From NCBI GenBank assembly GCA_947568835.1, contig OX387608.1:9772001-9836000 (forward strand): a stretch of 64,000 nucleotides of DNA. The letters are read 5' to 3'. Each line of letters opens with the position of its first letter. Position 1 is the stretch's first letter. A program made the position numbers and the translations under genes. The DNA comes from Protonemura montana (taxonomy: Eukaryota > Arthropoda > Insecta > Plecoptera > Nemouridae). The notes under the pieces are model-generated. The model was not told the origin of the DNA. It made no database searches and saw only the letters and a list, made by a program, of their open reading frames with translations. Positions 2,787 through 59,300 of the stretch are shown one piece after another.

Positions 2787-5700
2787 CTGCAGATCACAAG
2801 TACTTGGTTATGTAAGGGAAATTTCATGTAATTCTGGTTTTAATTTTTATAGATGAGGGCAGGTTACGATTAGTATTAATTTGAATGCCAGGTTGGAATT
2901 CCTATACAAACACATTTATGTCAGATTTTTTAATTCTTCTACTCCATTGTTGGCGCTATAGTAACGTAACAAAAATGTGACGGTGACATAAATAATTGCA
3001 TCGACCCAAATCATTGTCAAGACAGTAAGCTGAAGATTGGGTGTCGTAACAGTGACACGGAGTTGGGATGAGGGTGTCACTTCTTGATTTTTGGTACTTC
3101 AAGGACTACTGGAACGATGAACAAATCCCCGATTTTAGACCTTAAAATATGTTTTTTTTTATCCTAATGCGGTTGAATTCTTTAAAGATTTTGGGGCCGC
3201 AATTTTACTTTATCTTACCGAGACCGAAATCGCATTGCAGCGAAGTCAATGATATTATGGTACTCAAGACAGAGTGCAATTCAAATGCATGCCCTCAGCT
3301 GTCAGTGAAGGTTTATACGCAATTTTAATTTATAGCTGTTCTGTAATAGTATTCAATTTTACGGCATGAATGGTAAAAATGGAATATGTACAGAAACGCG
3401 TTAATTGTCCGATGAAAGTGAAAAACCTTTTTTAATTACGAGCCTGCACGCTATTGTCGTAACATATTGTTGTGTAAATACACAATTAAAGCATTGCTAT
3501 TGCTGTATCTTGTTATCTAATATTTCATTAATTAGGTAATAAGGTTAGTTAGAAACGATTGTTTAGAAAGAAAATAATGATTTTACAGTTCACGCACTTG
3601 ATTTTTTTTCACTTCTTTTGAATTACATTGTTTATGGACTGCTATAATTGAACATACGAAGTCCGGTAGGTGTACATCCTTTTACGCCGATTAATCAATA
3701 TAACTGTAACGTTTAATTTTTATTAAATATGCTTTGCAATATGGCTTCGTTTGAACCTAATATGCTAACTTTGGAAGAGGAGTAACAGAAAGTACTATCT
3801 CTTCTTTTTGAATATAAACAAATTAAAAAATATTTAGCTATAACATTTTCAGGGTCAGAACCATTAAAAAAAAAAATGCCAACGCACAGCCTTTCAGCTC
3901 TTGTTGCGAATTGCAAGGCTGTTTGTCCAAATTTGTATTGTGAGCTCTTATTTCCTGATAATTATATAGTAATTAATATAAGGAAATGTCATTCAACATG
4001 ATTGTAATGGGAACCTATGCATTTATCCTATCTGGTCAACAAACCCAGTATAAAAGCAAAAAAAAAAAGGGAAATAGACGATAAAAGACACTGTAGGGAA
4101 CTCTTTTATATCCCATGATCGATAATGTTGGGGTAATAAAGAAATATAATAATTAAGCTAGAAATAGTTGATTCAAAACCACGGACCTAAAATAACTACG
4201 CAGGACGTGCATCTCTGTGTACCAATGAATGAGTTATGCCAACGGAAGTTGAATGTAATCGAGGGGCAACCCGGAATATTTCAGCAATCTTCCTTCTTTA
4301 AAAAATAATAAACAACAATAATTAGAGCTAGTTTTAGAATGAAATCTTATTTAAATTGCAAACGCTTGCAATGCGCGGGGTATTTTATTATTATCAACAC
4401 TATAACCGTCTCAAAAATTGATGCCCAAACGCGGATTGAACATACTGGTGGAGATCGGGGTTCGAGTCCGCGTTTGGGCATCAATTTTTGAGACGGTTAT
4501 AGTGTTGATAATAATAATTAAACAAAAAAGAGCTAGTTTTAATTGTGAAATAGCAGGTAGCCACAAGATATCGAACTACGAGTGCAGGAAACATAGAATA
4601 TGACCGCCTCGCAATCCAACCGGAAATGCGTAACTAACTATATTAGCCGTCATTCAATCGCGTTGTAAATCCTGCAAAAGGAGGCTTAAACATCGTTCTT
4701 CTGTTTTTCTCTGGGCAGCAAAATAGAAGAACTAGGTTCCAGTCTCTTTGGTCCTGCAGTTTTAGGTCCTTGGTAAAACAAAATCATTGATTTCAAAGTG
4801 GCTAAGGTTCGGCTTTACTAAAATATCAACTCATAATTATAGTGTTTGTTGAAACTGTTGCTATGGTGACTTTCAAGCACATGCAGTGAAATTCAGATGT
4901 TTCTGTGAGCGAGAGGTCCAAATTATAGTTGAACATTTTGGTAAAACTCAACCTAAGTAATCTATAATTACTGATCAGCATACACCGAGTCGTTTATCGT
5001 TACCTATATGGTGATGCGTGATAGTGAATGCAAGTTGAACAAGTCATCGTAGATGCATAAATCTGCATAATTAAAGGCACGCACGTGATGCAAGTTTTTA
5101 TATGAATCAGGTTTTAAGTGGTTCGCACGTGTAGAAACAACGCTTTACTTAATAAAAAAAAATCGGTGATAACCATCGGTATTTTCAATCTACGATAGCG
5201 CTAAATCTGATTTAAATTTCAAACGCTTGGAATACCACCCTCTCAAAAATTGATTCCCGTTTTGGCATCAATTTTTTGAGAGGGTGGTAGTGTTCCTAAT
5301 AAGAAAATACAATAGCACTAATGTCAAACAATTCTCGAGAAAAATTTCCACCAAATGGCTACTTTACTGACAAAAATGGAGTATGCTGCTAGGGGTTTTT
5401 CGAGTGTTAAGACACTGCATTTTAATTTATCTCGCAGATTACTCGCATTTGAAACTGATTCACACATAATCGATATTTATTAATGCTAACCTCACTATTG
5501 AGTTACATAAATCGATATTTTAAGTCGTAATTATTTAATTGAATTGAGGTTTGTCAAAAATTACGGCCGCAAGCGCCATCGGGTGGCGCCTACCGTTATC
5601 ACGTGTTACCGGCTCGAATTGTTACACTAACGCTGGCCCTCTTACTGTGCCAATAAACTCTAACACAAATCCGACAGATTGTTATCAATCTGTAAATGGT

Positions 5701-8700
5701 CAATGGTAAATGGTCAATTAAGAATAAATAAAATATTATTATTATTATAATTATTATTATTATATAATTCTCTTGCAAATGATGCGAATAAAATTAACGT
5801 GAGATGCTCGTGAGAAATTAAAAAAAAAAAAAATGAGAATGGGGTAATATAATATTGGTATATATCAGGAAAAGTCGTGGCCAACGGCATGCAAGCAGAT
5901 ATAATTTCAATATAATAAACTCTTGCATCAATTGGCAAGGTGTCATTACTTGGTAATTATAACGTTGATGGCAGCTGTCACGCAAATTGCTCTAATCGCA
6001 TGATGGTTTACTGGCAATTGTTTTGACGTTAAGCGATAATGTGATGCAAAACAAAAGAACAAGATTCCGTGCTCCTAAATTGACAAATAATGATTACTTA
6101 CACTCTTGATTGCCGTAAGATATTTATATATTTTTATAATAAGTATTTATTATCATTAAGGGGTGTTAATTGCATATTTAATATGACATAAGTAAATTTT
6201 TTATTCAACCATGGATATGCTTACCTCATAAACGTCATAACCTCTCTTTTCTGAAAAGGACAGCAAAAAAATCGAACCTTCTCTGTAACATTGAGGTTAC
6301 GTATACTCCATTCGTAAATATATATTTTTTATTTTGATTATTTAGGTAATAGTCATTACACATTCAAAGCATGTTTATATTTGGAAAGTAAACATGATCG
6401 CCACCTGGTTGTTGATATGTGGTATTTTGAAGCATAAAGTATTCAAGCATCATCGGCATCACAGGTAAAATATTAAAATTTTGTTCGCAAACCCCGGCCT
6501 TCAGTAGTTGCGGCAGATTTTGGTTCTGAAGTGTGCATTATGCAAGGTGCATGTCTCTCTTCCGGGACATTTTGATGTTCACCATTGGATTTTATTGCAT
6601 TTTTAAGTGCGCCTTTTATTGATTGCAAAAGTTATATCAATAAAGTACTACTAAAAATTGTGTAAAATTATCCGAAAATTACGATTGCGGAAATGATTGA
6701 CTGAGGGCACTTTCTCGCGACTTTCAACTAATTGGAATGATTGATTTTTTGGAAAAATATAATTTCGGTTATGCAATGAAGCTCGATCTGACTTACGGTT
6801 AACACCAGTGTTTGATCAATAATTATTCCACAAGACAGTCTCTTAAAACTGTACCCTCCATGGTGTACCAAAAGTCGTTCACAAAAACTTGAAAATATTT
6901 CCACTTAATTGCGTATTTCCACTTACTCCCACTTAATTTACCTGTTCAAACACCTTTTCACAAACGGCAAGTCTCATTAAGTCGTTAAATTGGGTTCAAT
7001 TTATAATTATTTGGAAGTAATTTATCATGTGTACACATTCATATCATGTTGTCGTGTTGGAAACACCGGTTCTCATGAGATAACGAAAGTTAAGCAACAC
7101 TGCGCTAAGACATGCATTGAATGGGTGACCATCATACACATGACTTATTCTGTTCGGGATAGAGTTTGGACTTTGGAGGGATGAAAGTTAGTAGAACAAC
7201 TTCATTCGCTGTGCTTATCAACCTCTCGACAGCATGGATTTGTGGAGGAATCCTGCTGTTTGAGTTGTACCGTCCTTCAGAAGGCACTTTAAGCCGATTG
7301 ACCTGTAACTATGTGACATATGGGTATGATTTGAAAACTTATAAATCGGAGCTGTCTTTATTTGCTATATTTGAAAGCCACTGCAGAAAAAGTTACTTTT
7401 TAAAAATAGCATACAAGTTATACTAGCAATACAGTTTTATAAAATCGACAAATACTTAACTGTAGAAGGGTTATTAAAATTTACGAAAACTGACGCATTT
7501 GAAGAAAAAAACTAAAAAAAACAGTCTTTTATTGTAAAAATATTCTAAATAGTACAAGCCTATAAAGCCTCGTGCCTATATCTCAAAAAGACTTTAAAAA
7601 TTGTTTAGTATGTAATTTTGATGATTATAACTACTAGAAAAATAAACTACACGCCTGGTCATTGTCAAGCTGCTAAGTGAAGTGGACTTAAATTAATGGT
7701 AATTGTCAACCATACGTAAGACTTGAATTCGAAAACGTTGCATGACACCAACATTACTAGGTAGTGAGTACAAATTTAAATTTCTTCCCCATGTATCCAT
7801 AATGTGTACGTTCTCTGTTGCACAATGCAAGCATGACCTCAGTATGGAATCCTATTTGGACTTGAACTCAACTAAAAATACTTAATGAAGCGAAATAACT
7901 AGTACTTTTCCTTGACCTTAAAGCGAAAAATGCAGTCGAGAGCGACCACTTTGCACCGGAATTAATTAAAGAGTCTTTGCTGGCTATCGGCTAATATGCC
8001 ATTGACAATCTTTTGCACTGCATGCTTGCAGTAAGACGGGTTTTTTTTCACTGTCTTCTAGACTCTAATTAAACTGCATTTTTATGGTTTTAAGGTTTCA
8101 AAAAAATCAAGTCAACCGAACGGTTTGGCGTGTTGGAAACACCGGTTCTCATGAGATCACCGAAGTTAAACAACACTGCGCTGAGCCAGGTATTGGATGG
8201 GTGACCATCATAAACATGACCAGTTCTGATCGGGTCCAATACCTGATCTAGGGCAGTGATGCTTATTTTCGGTGATCTCACGAGAACCGGTGTTTCCAGC
8301 ACGCCAAACCGTTTGGTGTCTGTGTGGGTCACAGTTCCATGCCCATTCAGTAAACGTTGGGAGCTGTTGTTCATTGTGTCCACATGCTCTATTATTTTGG
8401 CAATGTCACGTACAAGTAGGAACACAATGGCCGAATAGTTTGAAGGCGAAAGCTGAAGATTTGTGTGACAATTGTTTGGTAATCGATTATGACAATTGAT
8501 TCTCTGTAGCACTTCATGTTAACGATATACTATTACGAAATTGGAATCAATTCAATTTCCTGTATGTGTGCGTGTGTATTTCGTGTGTGTTCGTCAATTT
8601 CGTGTACACATTACTACTACGGATTTGTGGCTTATCGCTTTGACGGATGAGCGTTAATTATGATATTTAAAAGTTTTTCAATACAAAACAGTATTTTTTC

Positions 8701-18949: not shown

Positions 18950-21900
18950 GTAAGTAATCATTATGCGTTTATCTTTTTGGGTTTGGGGCTCTTTCAGCCA
19001 TGTTGATGTAACATGCATAATGACACTATAACACGAACATTAACCCTTAAAAACCAGATCGTTGCAAAGTTTTTGCTATATCAATGTCTCGAATACCAAC
19101 AGTTGTGATCATTTTATTATTATCAACACTAAAACCATCTCGAAAATCGAGATTGGGCATCAATTTTTGAGATGGTTGTAGTGTTGATAATAATAAAATA
19201 ACCCGCGCATTGCAAGCGTTTGCAATTTAAATAAGATAACATCCGTGTTGTGATCATATTCTTTCAAATTCAAGACAGTTTATGCCTCAAAGCTTGGTTG
19301 CAAACTTGAAATAGATGAAGTTACGTTCTCTGATTGCATTCGAAACAATCGATCAGTTTTGTTTTTCTTTTCAGATGAAACTGATAGAACACGAAGAGAA
19401 ATATTTTCATATTCTTCACGCGGATTTCATGAAAAGAGCAGATGTTTTCAAAGTTCATGCCAAAAGAGTGTACAAATCTTTGAATGTCTTGTGGTATTCT
19501 GGTAAAAGAATGACCGCTGGTGACTCGAGAAGAGCTAAATGTCTTGATACCGTGGCTCGAATATCGGTGAACTGGATGTATACCGATCAATTACTGCGCA
19601 AAGAGATCGAGGGATTGGGTTTGCTCAGTCGAAGTGTGCCTAGTAAGTGTCAGTAATTTGACAAATTGTTTTTTTAATTACTTCAGACACAGTTGTGTAA
19701 ATATTTTAAAGTTGATTTTTTCTACAAAATTTATTAGCTTTAGATATTTGCTGATATTAGTTACAATTATAGCTGCCTTTGAAATTAGAAGCAATATTTT
19801 TAATCCGGTAGGAGACGGTCTGAATCCCTTTTTCTCAAAAAACTAACTTCTTTCTCTTTGAAAATATAGATTTAAAATCTATATTAGATTTATATTAGAT
19901 TTTAAATCGATCACTTCTACACCACTTTACATATTATTGTTGAGCAACTAGTCCTCAACTGTTATTAACATAAAAAACAGCATCTTTGTTGCTACCTATA
20001 GTTGATAGTAAAAAAACTTTACTGAGATTCAAGAGGGCCACACTGCATTGCTCTAAACATTGTTTCAATTGTTAAGGTCAAAGATGAGGTCCTTAATTTA
20101 TTTTCTCTTCTCTGCAGATAAAGTATCTTTAAGTCAGCTTCTGGTCAATATGATGGCCAGAGTTAGCGCCGTTGATGCTCAAATAAACTCCAACATGATT
20201 TGGGACGCAGATTGTGCGTCGAAGCTAAAAGGAGCCTTCAAGGAGGTGAACGACTTTTATAATTTTCAAAATTTCCCTGTGTATAAACGAGTAAAAACAT
20301 AACATGGTTCTATTACGGAAGCCCGATATCCTGGTTGTGAATTTCCTTTCATCATATATACCCTAACGTCCGACTACAACTTCAGAATTTTCATCAGATC
20401 ATCCCACGGGCCAAGCGACTGGTAGACGCCGACTGGATTGTTCGTTACTACTTTTTCTTCGAGAAAGCCAACAAGATCCTTTTGGAAAACGAACAACAGA
20501 TCAACGCGTACTTCCGTGCAACGTTGGGTGGCACACCAGAAGACTTTCCCATCGACTCCAGCTTTCCACGCGATCAAGCCAAGCCTCCACACGAGATAGC
20601 GTTCAGCCACGTGGCCCAGATAATCTCCAATCGCTTTTTGGACGCCGACCCGGCACCTCCAGAAGTCTTAGACCTGTCGCTTGCCAAGTCTGTGGGCGTC
20701 CCCACCGCCGAAATTAACAACCGCCCGGAGGGCCCAAACTACGACGAACTTCCCCAGCTGCTCGCGAAGACGATCGCCGAAGCACCCGACAACGTCGCGC
20801 TCGCTATAGAGAGGGTCGTCGCCAAGTTTAGTCAGGCCGACGAGCCGGAGTGCGTCGACTTAACCGAGTCACCGCCCCAGGTAAATGTCCCTTGCCAAAA
20901 GCGACTGGCCGGCCAAGAGCAGGGGACCCAGTGTACATCAGCAAAAATCGTGCGGCGGCGGCTGCCGATTGGGAAAGCAACAGCGCCACCTGCTAAAGGG
21001 GTCGTTAAAAATCCGGTGCATCCGTCGAGCAAGCCAGCGAAATCGGCGGCACCCTGCTTGCCCGTGACTGAAACCGAGCCGATGGTGGCAACACCCACAT
21101 CTGAAGGCGTCGCCGACCTCCCGAACGAGTCTGATAGATCGACGGTGGGAGCGCCCGTGCCTTGCTCGAGCGTGCAGCGATTCCTGTACGTAAGCACGCC
21201 GAAACCGAGCGCGAACGTGGCTGATCTCGCAGCGAATGAGCTGCGACTGGGGTTTGGTGGCGAGGGTGCGGTGAACACCAAGGGGGCGCTGTTTGAACGG
21301 TTGTATCGGCCGGACGGTGTCCACCAGCGCAAGGAGTTCGACGCTTTGTTGCCAGAGCGCGCCACCGGCGCAGAAGCATCCAGCTTTGAGTGTAAAAGTA
21401 GCGACCATCTGGTTCCTTTAACGCAGCGAACTGGTGTCGTGAAGACGTTGAGGGCCGTCAAGGTTTCGGGCGTCGTGAATGTGGGCGCGAAGAGGAAGTT
21501 TCTGGAGGTTAACGAGCCAGTAGAGGTTACGAAACCGGGAAAAGTTGTCAAAATCGTTGATAAAACGAGCGAGCTCAAGTTTGCCGGCAATGTGGCGGAG
21601 GTAAGGAGGCGTTTCGTGGCCAATGGCCGCCAGCCGTTCAAAGAGATACGCCCGGCTCTACCAAATACGGAGGTTGTCGACGCTGGAAAGCGTAGCGACG
21701 CTTCGCATTTCCCGCCATCTGCCGATGGTATCAGGATGCCGAAGATGGACTTCCGTTTTAAGCCGTACAAATTGGAGTTGCTCAGGAATGACTCCTCGAT
21801 GCCGAATATGTTGGGGAAGGCGGCTGCGACGGGCGGTGAGTTGGAGGCAGCGACCAAGAAGTATGACTTTCGTGCAAGGGCTAGGGACGGCCGCGACGGG

Positions 21901-21987
21901 AACGATGTGAAAATGGAGGAGCACGGGTTGATGGGACCGACAATTAAGATGAGGAAGGATTTGTTTAGCAAACAAGCTCCGAAGTAG
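18905..21987 (+). CDS. Protein with N-terminal TRFH-like domain (possible TRF/TIN2-type telomere protein), about 680 aa, four exons
   Basis: Exons 18905-18949, 19375-19642, 20118-20245 and 20386-21987 join in phase (0, 1, 0) and end at TAG. The start ATG has an ideal context (AGAAATGG). Residues about 90-240 show the helical pattern of the TRFH fold. SLSQLLVNMMARVSAV aligns with TVSRLLRVMQCLSRI of human TRF2. AKRLVDADWIV plus FEKANKIL aligns with SRKLVKEAAVI plus FEKASKIL. HEIAFSHVAQIISNRFLDA aligns with the C-terminal helices after the NFSY segment of TRF2. Residues 240-680 are Pro/Ala/Val/Lys-rich, charged and probably disordered. TRF1 and TRF2 end in a Myb/telobox domain; none is seen, so the layout is nearer TIN2. 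Exon 3 could instead end at 20290, adding 15 residues. The gene is near-certain; the TRFH assignment rests on recalled sequence and is moderate. Confidence 0.72.
19113..19246 (-). mobile_element. Hairpin SINE, copy 3, with 11-bp target-site duplication
   Basis: Lies in intron 1 of the TRFH-like gene. It is flanked by perfect repeats GTTGTGATCAT (19102-19112 and 19247-19257). On the minus strand it starts with the leader TTGCAAACGCTTGCAATGCG, then the inverted arms (TTATTATTATCAACACTA outward) around a tiny core with ATTGGGCATC. The tRNA-like core is shorter than in copy 1, leaving almost only the hairpin. Confidence 0.8.
19375..19642 (+). CDS. TRFH-like gene exon 2
   Basis: The acceptor TTTCTTTTCAG precedes 19375; the donor A|GTAAGT follows 19642. 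268 bp, ending phase 1. It carries helical, charged sequence up to DQLLRKEIEGLGLLSRSVP, which corresponds in position to TRFH helix 2. Confidence 0.85.
20118..20245 (+). CDS. TRFH-like gene exon 3
   Basis: The acceptor CTCTTCTCTGCAG precedes 20118. The preferred donor GAG|GTGAAC (20246) gives phase 0; a second in-frame donor CGA|GTAAAA after 20290 would add 15 residues. The shorter form fits TRFH helix spacing better. Encodes KVSLSQLLVNMMARVSAV and SKLKGAFKE. Confidence 0.8.
20386..21987 (+). CDS. TRFH-like gene exon 4 (large terminal exon)
   Basis: The acceptor CTACAACTTCAG precedes 20386. The frame is open for 533 codons to the TAG at 21985. Codon third positions are strongly G/C, so long antisense and frame-shifted ORFs appear over the same bases; these are shadows. 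It encodes the C-terminal half of the TRFH-like fold, then the long low-complexity region. Confidence 0.95.
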   Translation, partial: NFHQIIPRAKRLVDADWIVRYYFFFEKANKILLENEQQINAYFRATLGGTPEDFPIDSSFPRDQAKPPHEIAFSHVAQIISNRFLDADPAPPEVLDLSLAKSVGVPTAEINNRPEGPNYDELPQLLAKTIAEAPDNVALAIERVVAKFSQADEPECVDLTESPPQVNVPCQKRLAGQEQGTQCTSAKIVRRRLPIGKATAPPAKGVVKNPVHPSSKPAKSAAPCLPVTETEPMVATPTSEGVADLPNESDRSTVGAPVPCSSVQRFLYVSTPKPSANVADLAANELRLGFGGEGAVNTKGALFERLYRPDGVHQRKEFDALLPERATGAEASSFECKSSDHLVPLTQRTGVVKTLRAVKVSGVVNVGAKRKFLEVNEPVEVTKPGKVVKIVDKTSELKFAGNVAEVRRRFVANGRQPFKEIRPALPNTEVVDAGKRSDASHFPPSADGIRMPKMDFRFKPYKLELLRNDSSMPNMLGKAAATGGELEAATKKYDFRARARDGRDGNDVKMEEHGLMGPTIKMRKDLFSKQAPK

Positions 21988-31654: not shown

Positions 31655-31780
31655 GTGCCTGTCTTAAGCGCTCCGTCCCGGGGTTCTAGTCCCCGGTAGG
31701 GCAAAACATTTTTAGAGATTATTAATTTTCTTAATAATCAAATATTCTACCGATTGCAAGCGTTTGAAATTAAAATTTTA
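31655..31780 (-). repeat. Hairpin-SINE relic, copy 4
   Basis: On the plus strand a 3' tRNA half (CCCGGGGTTCTAGTCCCCGG, then TAGGGCA) is followed by AT-rich sequence and GATTGCAAGCGTTTGAAATT, the reverse complement of the family leader. The arms are eroded. Confidence 0.55.
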
Positions 31781-31845
31781 CTATTCTGCTTGTCCCCTGG
31801 CTTTTTTTTATCCCTCACAGTTTACGCCATTCAAGTTTGCTGTGG

Positions 31846-56300: not shown

Positions 56301-59300
56301 GATAACAAGAGAGTCGGCCGATTACGCTTGTAATTGCAATGCCAGTGCTAATTACGCACGCCGACAACGTCGACACATGCCCCGTACCGTTCAATTACAT
56401 CGGTCAAGCCTGCGCGTAGACCGAGTGGCCGGCACAGTGGCGCCCCCTATATAAATAAGCTAGGGTATTCGAAATAGTTAAAATATTGGACGTTTTAGTT
56501 GAATGTCCTAAATATTGATAAACAAAGTGGTTCCCTATATAAGAATTTTCTAAAACCTCAGATAAAATAGGAGCTAAATTAACAAAAGCTATTTGAAATG
56601 GGTTTTGAATGCTAAGTAAAGGAGTAAGTGTCCTTTACTTAGCATTCAAAACCCATTTCAAATAGTTTTTGTTAAAACTAGTGCTAAGGATAAATCAAGT
56701 AGACATGAGTCTAAAAACCATCAAAAGGAGTTAAATTGATTGTCATGGCAACAGCCAATCACGTGTAGTGAAATCCAGCTGTTTCTGTGAGCTAGAAGCT
56801 TAACTCGGATTTGAAAAATATCGTAATACCGGCCGAAGAGCTCTTTTTCAAAGTCCACTAAATAAGCTTCTATTTTAATCTAATTATACGGTTTTATATT
56901 TAATTGGACTTTGTAAAAATATCCTTCTCTTAAATATTTACGTTTTTTGTCACCGAAGTTACTGAGTAAATATATTTTCATGAACATTAGGTATGCTTTT
57001 AGAAACACTCGGTTATTCATTGAGTGCACCTCAGTAATTAGAGTTGGGATAAATGCGTTTTTTAAAGATATAATACAAATTACATATTTTCATGAAAAGC
57101 TATAAGGTTTGCTTTTAGGAGCACTCAATTATTCAACGAGTGCACCTCAGTAATTACAGTTGAGATAAATGCGCTTTTTTCAGATAAAATATAAATTAAA
57201 TCACAGCTTACAAGTAGTAATTGTGTGTCTCGTGCAGCAACGAATAAGTTTATTAGAAAACTAGACCGTTTTTCACTCAACGACAGTACCATTTTAATTA
57301 CAACTTGCCGAACGTAAAGTCAGCACAAAAAAAGGAATGAAAAAATTTCGCAAAGCTCGAGGACATTGTTTGAGCTAGCAGGATTGAAGAAAGGTTCTTT
57401 TAACAAATTTTTTTTTAATAGACTTACTTTTTGAAGTTGATAAATTGCATGGATGTTAATCATATCTGTTGCCTTAGCGCATAATTATTGCTAACCAGTG
57501 GAATCACACTACCATTGATATAATTTAATATTATCTTGTCGAAAATAAAAGCTATGTGACTAATTTACTTACAAAAATGGTGAATACTGCTAGATGGAGT
57601 CATTGTCGCTTCGAGTTTTGAACTATTTAGTTTAATTATATCTTGCAGACTACTCATATTTAAGACTGATTTATGCTGAATCAATATTCATTAATGCTAG
57701 AATGGACGATTGATATACAAGTATCGATATTTTGAGTCATAATTATTTTATAGTTAAGGTTTGTAAAAAAAGGACGGACGCAAGCGCCATCGGGTGGGAC
57801 ATTCCGTTACCTAGTTTTACCGGCTTGTTAGCTCAGAGCAGAAATGTTAACATTGCAGCTGGCTCTCTAAAAATACCTGTAAACTCAATTATATAATTTA
57901 CTGTAGCAGGGACTGGCCAAGCTATATATAACACGTGATGACACCCAAGGCCTAACCGCAAATTAGCTGCTAATTTAATTACAATTATGTTCACTCATGG
58001 TTGTAATCGTAGGGATCAAGTTCTGACGCTATGTTTATTGCAGCTTAATTAAAAGCGCTTGCAAGGTTCAATTTGCATTCAATCCATTAATCTTAAACTT
58101 TATGTACTTGTTTAAAACTAAATTAAACATGTACGAAATTATGTGAAATCTGATTTAAATTGCAAACGCTTGTAATGCGCGGGCACTTAAATCCTCTCTA
58201 CAATGATGTGTCCAAGTAGCTCAATGGGTTAGAGCAAGACCCGCGATAGGTGGAGATCGGGGTTCAAGTTCCCGTTTGGGTGTCATATTTTGAGAGGATA
58301 TAAAATGTAAGAAATTAATGGCTTGTACTCAAGATTTAGATTATTTGTTACCATCGACCATAATTAAATTAAATTTGAAGCAATATTGTTAAAATTAAAA
58401 TAAACTTGCATAATATAATGTTTAAAACTGTAAGCCAAATTTCAAAAACCCAACATTTACTTTAGGGTCGGTTTTTAACTGTCAACTACTTTTCAAATTT
58501 GGGTAAAACTATTAAAAACATGTCCTACTAAATAAGGATTAAAATTTCATGAATGTGGCCACAAAATCCGGTGCCAAAAGCGTTTTAAAAGTTGTATTAG
58601 TTTTCGAAAAACAATTCTCGGTGCGGTACGCCACCACGTTGTTCCTCATCATGGAACCCCGTGCTCGAGAACAACTTGGGTAATTGATGTGTGTGTGTAG
58701 GGGTGTGTGTGTGGGGGTGAATTGATTAGACAGACATAATAATATGATATGAGCGTTACCCTGACCGGACGGGGTGTGTTGATTCGTACATCACGGGACT
58801 GTTACATTACGTGCCGGCCAACAATGGAACGCGTCCGGGATTGTTTCGAGAACACCGAACGGTTGTTTTGTACCTTGATTGTTAATGATTAATTCTGAGA
58901 ATTATTTTATAGCTTTCAGGCGATACAGTTGGTAAACAACGATGAGTAATGATTTGAGAATATTTTATGAGCGTTTTTTTTTTGGCTACGCTACTTTTTT
59001 AATTCGTGCTCGGACATAAATTTGTTTGAAAACTTTTTTTTGGTTGGGTGAGTTTTCATCTAAAAATAATTTTTAACACAACCTATCTGTCATTATGTGG
59101 GAGATGTCTGTTAGTTCATGTCAGGTTGCTTTTAGGAAGGCTTCTTTCCGTGTCACTCAAATACGTGCATGTCTACACACAACGACGGTCCCAAAAATCA
59201 GTCCAGTTTAACAGATTTTATCCATTACTCTTTCCGGTAAAATCCCATACACCCAATGAAAGATATGATTATTTTTCAAATCTCTTCTAAAATTATATCT

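What the first reader, a model, noticed from the sequence alone, without database searches (positions are those of the whole stretch)
4324..4541. A SINE that is itself a giant hairpin closing on a tRNA-like core
Copy 1 has a perfect 13-bp target-site duplication, a leader with TTGCAAACGCTTGCAATGCG, and about 50-bp inverted arms that extend a tRNA-like acceptor stem (TGCCCAA/TTGGGCA) around a B box. SINEs normally lack such terminal symmetry. Here the transcript would fold into one long stem and the DNA into a cruciform, mixing MITE-like shape with retrotransposon-type insertion.
Basis: partly seen in the sequence, partly recalled or inferred. Interest (0 to 1): 0.72.

Follow-up and report, generated by a model that had tools for sequence, protein, structure and literature searches.

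The report
SINE hairpins made anew each insertion
A short mobile element with a transfer-RNA-like core is inserted here as a DNA hairpin, and in the relatives sampled from the same genome the hairpin seems to have been formed separately at each insertion rather than inherited, which is unusual for this kind of element.

Summary
Window 4337-4528 is a 192-nt element between perfect 13-bp target-site duplications, with 51-nt arms that are 100% complementary around a 31-nt centre. It belongs to a large family: the 20-nt leader occurs 3401 times exactly in the 258-Mb host genome, control 0. Ends are nearly fixed (leader at one end, AATAATAAAA at the other), duplications are variable (9-15 bp), and the unit holds a tRNA-like core. 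The reading changes: the hairpin is not an inherited shape. The left arm is the antisense of the right, tRNA-containing part, and 99 of 100 copies with both parts have a different junction. Junctions carry microhomology or, often, locally copied filler. Right arms often end one base before the T-loop A58. I think each hairpin is born at insertion, as two opposite-strand reverse transcripts of a 331-nt unit joined in the middle, like LINE-1 twin priming but as the rule. A count made to find the same stop in left arms did not find it, so a strand-to-strand template switch, or a hairpin RNA, stays open. New variant of a known kind.

The parts
4324..4336 (+). left target-site duplication, 13 bp
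4337..4384 (+). leader (unit positions about U5-U52), with a 7-bp stem ATTGCAA/TTGCAAT
4385..4435 (+). left arm: antisense of the tRNA-containing unit (about U53-U103)
4436..4466 (+). centre between the perfect arms: join of the left part and the right part (right part from about U126)
4459..4469 (+). B box GGTTCGAGTCC (T-loop; A58 equivalent at 4465 by my numbering)
4467..4517 (+). right arm: tRNA-sense 3' part and tail
4518..4528 (+). A-rich 3' end next to the duplication
4529..4541 (+). right target-site duplication, 13 bp
19113..19246 (-). second copy: same leader, shorter hairpin with another centre; duplication ATGATCACAAC
58142..58304 (+). relative: leader joined to an almost complete tRNA-like core (58210-58282, Rfam tRNA 32.7 bits), little hairpin; duplication ATGTACGAAATTA / ATGTAAGAAATTA

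Best explanation
A tRNA-derived SINE (331-nt unit) moved by target-primed reverse transcription, in which both ends of the staggered target break are normally used as primers. One reverse transcript starts at the A-rich site U54-U51 of the tRNA-sense strand and runs into the tRNA-like region, often stopping one base before A58. The other starts at the unit boundary U1 (the 'leader', which on this view is the RNA's 3' tail with its small stem) and runs the same way on a second RNA copy. The two cDNA ends are then joined in the middle by microhomology or short, locally copied filler, which makes a hairpin with a new centre at each insertion. Shown: nearly fixed ends, duplications, distinct centres, arms from opposite strands of one unit, junction microhomology and filler, right-arm stop. 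Inferred: RNA polarity and ends, two-sided priming, m1A58 as the cause of the stop, the joining step.
For: Distinct junctions in 99 of 100 copies (69 of 70 in the contig-C1 and right-end samples, 28 of 28 in the similarity sample); the one coincidence (L052, L121) lies in 21 bp of homology. Duplications: 81 of 145 placements score 10 or more against 15 of 145 controls; 63 of 93 copies tried have an exact duplication of 9-15 bp (9 is the floor of the rule), median 12, with A-rich starts (A 0.70 and 0.52 at the first two bases, background 0.30). Overlap of 0-21 nt, median 3, mean 4.4, in 25 no-filler junctions; 17 of 26 fillers of 8 nt or more are locally templated or self-repeating (p 0.05 each, uncorrected). 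Right-arm ends pile up at U103-105: 14 of 41 in U86-130. Exact-prefix counts of all arms fall 9.9%, 17.7%, 9.8% at steps 103-104, 104-105, 105-106 (2446, 2204, 1814, 1637). One-sided products exist: L033 (leader side only, 14-bp duplication) and, read by eye, L133 (right side only). Passages of PMC13174262 name twin priming as the likely source of opposite-orientation segments, tRNA pieces among them.
Against: A count of left arms only, made to find the same stop, did not: 132, 126, 117 copies at U104, U105, U106, losses 4.5% then 7.1%, although 6 of 39 sampled left ends in U86-130 are at U104. Left and right end points are linked in the C1 plus right-end samples (Spearman 0.38, p 0.002; within 20 nt 43% against 28% permuted, p 0.0008), which a strand switch predicts at least as well; in the similarity sample they are not (Spearman -0.37, p 0.06). 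In LINE-1 twin priming as I recall it the two segments do not overlap; here they usually do, so two RNAs or strand displacement are needed. In the C1 sample 14 of 59 right ends carry more than the four templated A's. Few one-sided insertions were seen. The insertion sites do not show the L1 motif. No partner LINE was looked for.
Confidence: 0.42

Rival explanations
1. Template switch between complementary strands: reverse transcription starts on tRNA-sense RNA at the A-rich end, stalls, and the same enzyme jumps to an antisense (leader-strand) RNA of the family, finishing at its 5' end U1.
For: Stop at U103-105 strong in right arms, present in the count of all arms and not seen in the count of left arms; linked end points; arms of one copy share subfamily but often differ, with left TC/right AC in 10 of 74 and the reverse in 0 (8 of the 10 are in the similarity sample, which is biased); the left arm can be longer than the right, which rules out simple snap-back of one cDNA.
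Against: Needs an antisense RNA with a 5' end at U1; I recognised no promoter for it by eye. Right-only insertions should be common, and few were seen. L033 (leader side only, no A-rich end, 14-bp duplication) would have to start elsewhere.
Confidence: 0.25
2. One long hairpin RNA from palindromic source loci (leader strand first, tRNA strand second); the reverse transcriptase skips the tip of the hairpin at a different place each time.
For: One leader end and one A-rich end in the copies with duplications; copies with more than one unit on a side exist (L011, L085, L104, L120); end points linked.
Against: No intact long palindromic source was seen among the stretches read, but these are short (264 to about 3200 nt) and a small part of the family. 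The T-loop stop would need the tRNA part to be folded and modified although it pairs with the other arm. L033 and L133 are one-sided.
Confidence: 0.17
3. Whole palindromes are inserted and their centres are later cut and rejoined at the DNA level (centre-break revision).
For: Microhomology and templated filler look like end joining; long DNA palindromes are known to be unstable (own knowledge).
Against: Some centres are very tight (L123: arms to U101 and U100 with 1 nt between), not what I would expect revision to leave; both arms are the same DNA, yet the excess of ends before U105 is seen in right arms and not in the left-arm count.
Confidence: 0.06
4. The hairpin is inherited: a hairpin master copies itself and centres drift by later mutation.
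For: Rare variants shared by both arms beyond arm type (11 against 5.8 permuted, p 0.0013).
Against: 99 of 100 copies have different junctions although many duplications are intact.
Confidence: 0.04

Closest known systems
LINE-1 twin-primed (5'-inverted) insertions
   Same: Inverted segment beside one duplication, direct segment with A-rich end beside the other, microhomology at the inner join. In PMC2912911 (passages) 639 of 2068 human- and chimpanzee-specific L1 insertions are 5'-inverted.
   Different: Here the element is a SINE, the inverted form is the usual one in the sample, the outer ends are nearly fixed, and the two segments mostly overlap and form a hairpin. The same paper reports one 5'-inverted Alu insertion.
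tRNA/LINE-1 chimeric insertions (PMC13174262, passages)
   Same: tRNA pieces mostly in opposite orientation, with twin priming suggested there; duplications of 9-19 bp in the eight cases checked.
   Different: 21 loci there; here one family with thousands of exact leader matches, and no LINE sequence noticed in the inserts.
tRNA-derived SINEs
   Same: tRNA-like core with B box, short, variable duplications, A-rich end.
   Different: tRNA part not at the 5' end, opposite-strand leader, hairpin, copy-specific centre.
MITEs and foldback elements
   Same: Hairpin shape of single copies.
   Different: Leader at one end only in copies with duplications; duplications of 9-15 bp instead of a fixed length.

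Membership tests
tRNA-derived SINE | tRNA-like region with Pol III boxes | tested here: met
   B box exact at 4459-4469; tRNA-like core in the sister copy 58210-58282, 32.7 bits against a cut-off of 29; the window copy itself lacks the A-box half (15 bits)
tRNA-derived SINE | variable-length target-site duplications | tested here: met
   63 of 93 copies with 9-15 bp exact; 81 of 145 placements against 15 of 145 controls
tRNA-derived SINE | A-rich or simple 3' end | tested here: met
   right ends at AATAAT plus A's; in the C1 sample a run of 4 or more A's in 31 of 59, shorter in 9, no AATAAT-A run found in 19
tRNA-derived SINE | transcribed by Pol III | not testable with these tools
   a TTTTT run lies just 3' of the tRNA-like part, so a plain Pol III transcript might end there
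tRNA-derived SINE | mobilised by a partner LINE sharing its 3' tail | not tested
   no LINE was searched for
Twin-primed insertion | opposite-orientation segments between duplications, join with microhomology | tested here: met
Twin-primed insertion | non-overlapping segments of one RNA (recalled) | tested here: not met
   11 of 70 C1 and right-end copies have at most 12 bp of overlap, 59 have more
Twin-primed insertion | L1-type TT/AAAA target | tested here: not met
   A-rich start of the duplication, but A-rich, not T-rich, bases before it, in 63 copies
MITE | terminal inverted repeats and fixed-length duplication | tested here: not met
   leader at one end only in copies with duplications; 9-15 bp

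The most novel reading that the evidence does not exclude
A SINE family for which two-sided priming is the normal insertion route, so that each of perhaps thousands of copies is an independent record of where reverse transcription stopped, including an in-vivo footprint of a modified base (m1A58-like) in the SINE RNA.
Probability: 0.3. Interest if true: 0.78.

Novelty: new variant of a known kind. Interest (0 to 1): 0.6.

Why it matters
Inverted SINE insertions look rare elsewhere (one 5'-inverted Alu in PMC2912911, passages). A family in which they predominate would give a natural library of insertion joins, of use for finding out how two cDNA ends are joined at a target break and whether SINE RNA carries tRNA modifications. 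It also seeds a genome with hairpins that could feed small-RNA pathways.

Tried and rejected
Snap-back of one cDNA: rejected, because the left arm is often longer than the right and carries the leader, which a cDNA starting at U51 does not hold. Known RNA families: mir-5984 and mir-219 matches are below their gathering scores and probably reflect any long hairpin. Inheritance of the hairpin: disfavoured by distinct junctions. Same stop in left arms: looked for and not confirmed. Age test by duplications: the raw mismatch of duplications, 62 of 867, is inflated by their A-rich ends; in the 20 copies with perfect duplications arms still differ at 37 of 703 positions, against 109 of 2106 in all 60, so arms probably differed at birth, but this is no proof. 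T-to-A at U105 (8 of 118 arms) fits misreading of m1A but may be an inherited variant. Literature: seven searches. Searches (phrases such as palindromic SINE, foldback SINE; three stretches of the leader) returned no paper; in the listings of the others I saw no title or abstract start that describes this family; two searches listed 10 of 50 and 15 of 20 papers. Three papers were opened: passages of PMC13174262 and PMC2912911, abstract and section list of PMC4787781. The host was not identified.

Rows dropped before counts: one search left out internal units of tandems (recognised by the upstream end of the unit) and eight placements by hand (L002-155, L026-485, L109+1197, L118+1384, L020+1516, L025+2187, L043-1500, L032+1500); L086 was counted as without right arm although it has a short one, and L051 is there twice. 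One search dropped second-strand duplicates of L011, L020 and L035 and copies with an arm end below U86. still held those duplicates. The U104 position was picked after seeing the right ends; the control could by chance draw the copy itself.

Full report
What is there. At 4337-4528 a 192-nt element lies between perfect 13-bp duplications; its arms (4385-4435, 4467-4517) are 51 nt and fully complementary, and its RNA would fold at -104.3 kcal/mol (z -16.6). The window lies in a genome of 258,480,905 bases in 34 contigs, a eukaryote by size and content that I did not identify. The leader occurs 1725 + 1676 times exactly, the reversed control 0.

The family. I read 160 loci: 30 by similarity to the window copy, 30 at exact leader sites on contig C1, 60 stretches at further C1 sites, and 40 stretches at exact right-end sites; a few hold the same place twice. 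The unit is 331 nt; some copies have two units in tandem at a spacing of 331-333 (L038; L074, L105, L120). Call the leader strand L and the tRNA-sense strand R, with U1 the first leader base. A typical copy is duplication, L from U1 to a, centre, R from b down to about U51, A's, duplication.

Distinct centres. Of 122 first-leader placements 100 have a right arm: 59 of the C1 sample, 11 of the right-end sample, 28 of the similarity sample, 2 more from the window; the 22 without are all in the C1 sample. Of the 100, 99 junctions are distinct. The window copy and its two sister copies differ too. In the C1 and right-end samples left and right end points are linked: median distance 29.5 against 47.3 permuted (p 0.0014), within 20 nt 43% against 28% (p 0.0008), Spearman 0.38 (64 single-unit copies, p 0.002). 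The similarity sample, which is biased, shows no such link (Spearman -0.37, p 0.06).

How the centre is joined. In 25 junctions without filler the overlap is 0-21 nt, median 3, mean 4.4; chance would give about 0.67 by my reckoning. Of 26 fillers of 8 nt or more, 14 match the flanks beyond shuffles at p 0.05, 9 repeat themselves, 17 do either (not corrected for the number of tests). L131 repeats GTCCGCGTTTG three times.

The stop before A58. Right ends b are at U103-105 in 14 of 41 cases within U86-130 (Poisson p 1.2e-6 against uniform), left ends a in 7 of 39 (p 0.017), 6 of them at U104 (the position was picked after seeing the right ends). In the tRNA strand U105 is the T-loop A58 by my numbering; U104 is the base that would be copied last before it. 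Exact-prefix counts over all arms lose 9.9%, 17.7% and 9.8% at successive steps (2446, 2204, 1814, 1637); substitution at U104, U105 and U106 in 118 read-through arms is 4.2%, 8.5% and 7.6%, so an excess of losses remains after U103 and U104. Counts tied to the leader, that is left arms only, lose 4.5% and 7.1% (132, 126, 117): no excess. These are young, exact copies and the numbers are small, but the result speaks against an equal stop on both sides. That m1A arrests and misleads reverse transcriptases is from the abstract of PMC4787781; that this A is methylated here is inference.

Arms. In 74 copies the two outer arms share non-consensus bases more than permuted (38 against 14.3, p 0.0003), also within arm types (11 against 5.8, p 0.0013), yet differ at 1.96 of at most 36 positions on average; left TC with right AC occurs 10 times, the reverse 0, 8 of the 10 in the biased similarity sample. 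In the 20 copies with perfect duplications arms differ at 37 of 703 positions. So both arms come from the same subfamily as a rule but probably not from one molecule.

Insertion. 63 of 93 copies tried have exact duplications of 9-15 bp, median 12; they start with A (0.70, 0.52), and bases -4 to -2 before them are A-rich (0.57-0.75), which fits a T-rich primer on the AAAA at U54-51 but not the L1 site TT/AAAA. Among 22 placements without a called right arm, six have a duplication score of 10 or more (L033, L051, L054, L060, L084, L086); 300 swapped controls reach at most 9. L086 has a short right arm; L051 has an altered left end; L051, L054 and L060 end near U56-67 beside A's or T's and could be early jumps; L084 has a long AT-rich filler. 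L033 ends in the tRNA part without A's, which points to priming at the U1 end: one clear case.

Judgement. That hairpins form anew at insertion I hold at about 0.85. Which of two-sided priming, strand switch or hairpin RNA is at work stays open; I put two-sided priming first because it needs one RNA polarity, explains one-sided products, and has a precedent suggested for tRNA pieces (PMC13174262 passages). The left-arm count is its weakest point.

Noticed in passing
window 8115-8317: 5S rRNA match (61.2 bits) followed by its own inverted copy: arms 8115-8197 and 8235-8317, 83 nt, 86% complementary. The 5S part is found at many places (40 scored of 4759 candidates), often with a second partial copy downstream; possibly a 5S-derived SINE.
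   Followed up: partly
L032, L126, L151, L153, L155, L157: Runs of a unit of about 52 bp, the first part of the tRNA-like core repeated head to tail inside copies of this family (read by eye).
   Followed up: no
window 20482-21987: 501-aa open frame in a 2-kb stretch of 53% G+C, where the other 2-kb steps of the window lie between 32% and 41%.
   Followed up: no
window 31670-31790 (-): Diverged leader-like motif (3 mismatches) next to an antisense tRNA-like stretch; perhaps another, older family.
   Followed up: no
right-arm ends near U193-204: Second cluster of right-arm ends some 30-40 nt upstream of the tRNA-like part, four of them at U202 (L048, L104, L110, L160); perhaps an RNA 5' end.
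   Followed up: partly
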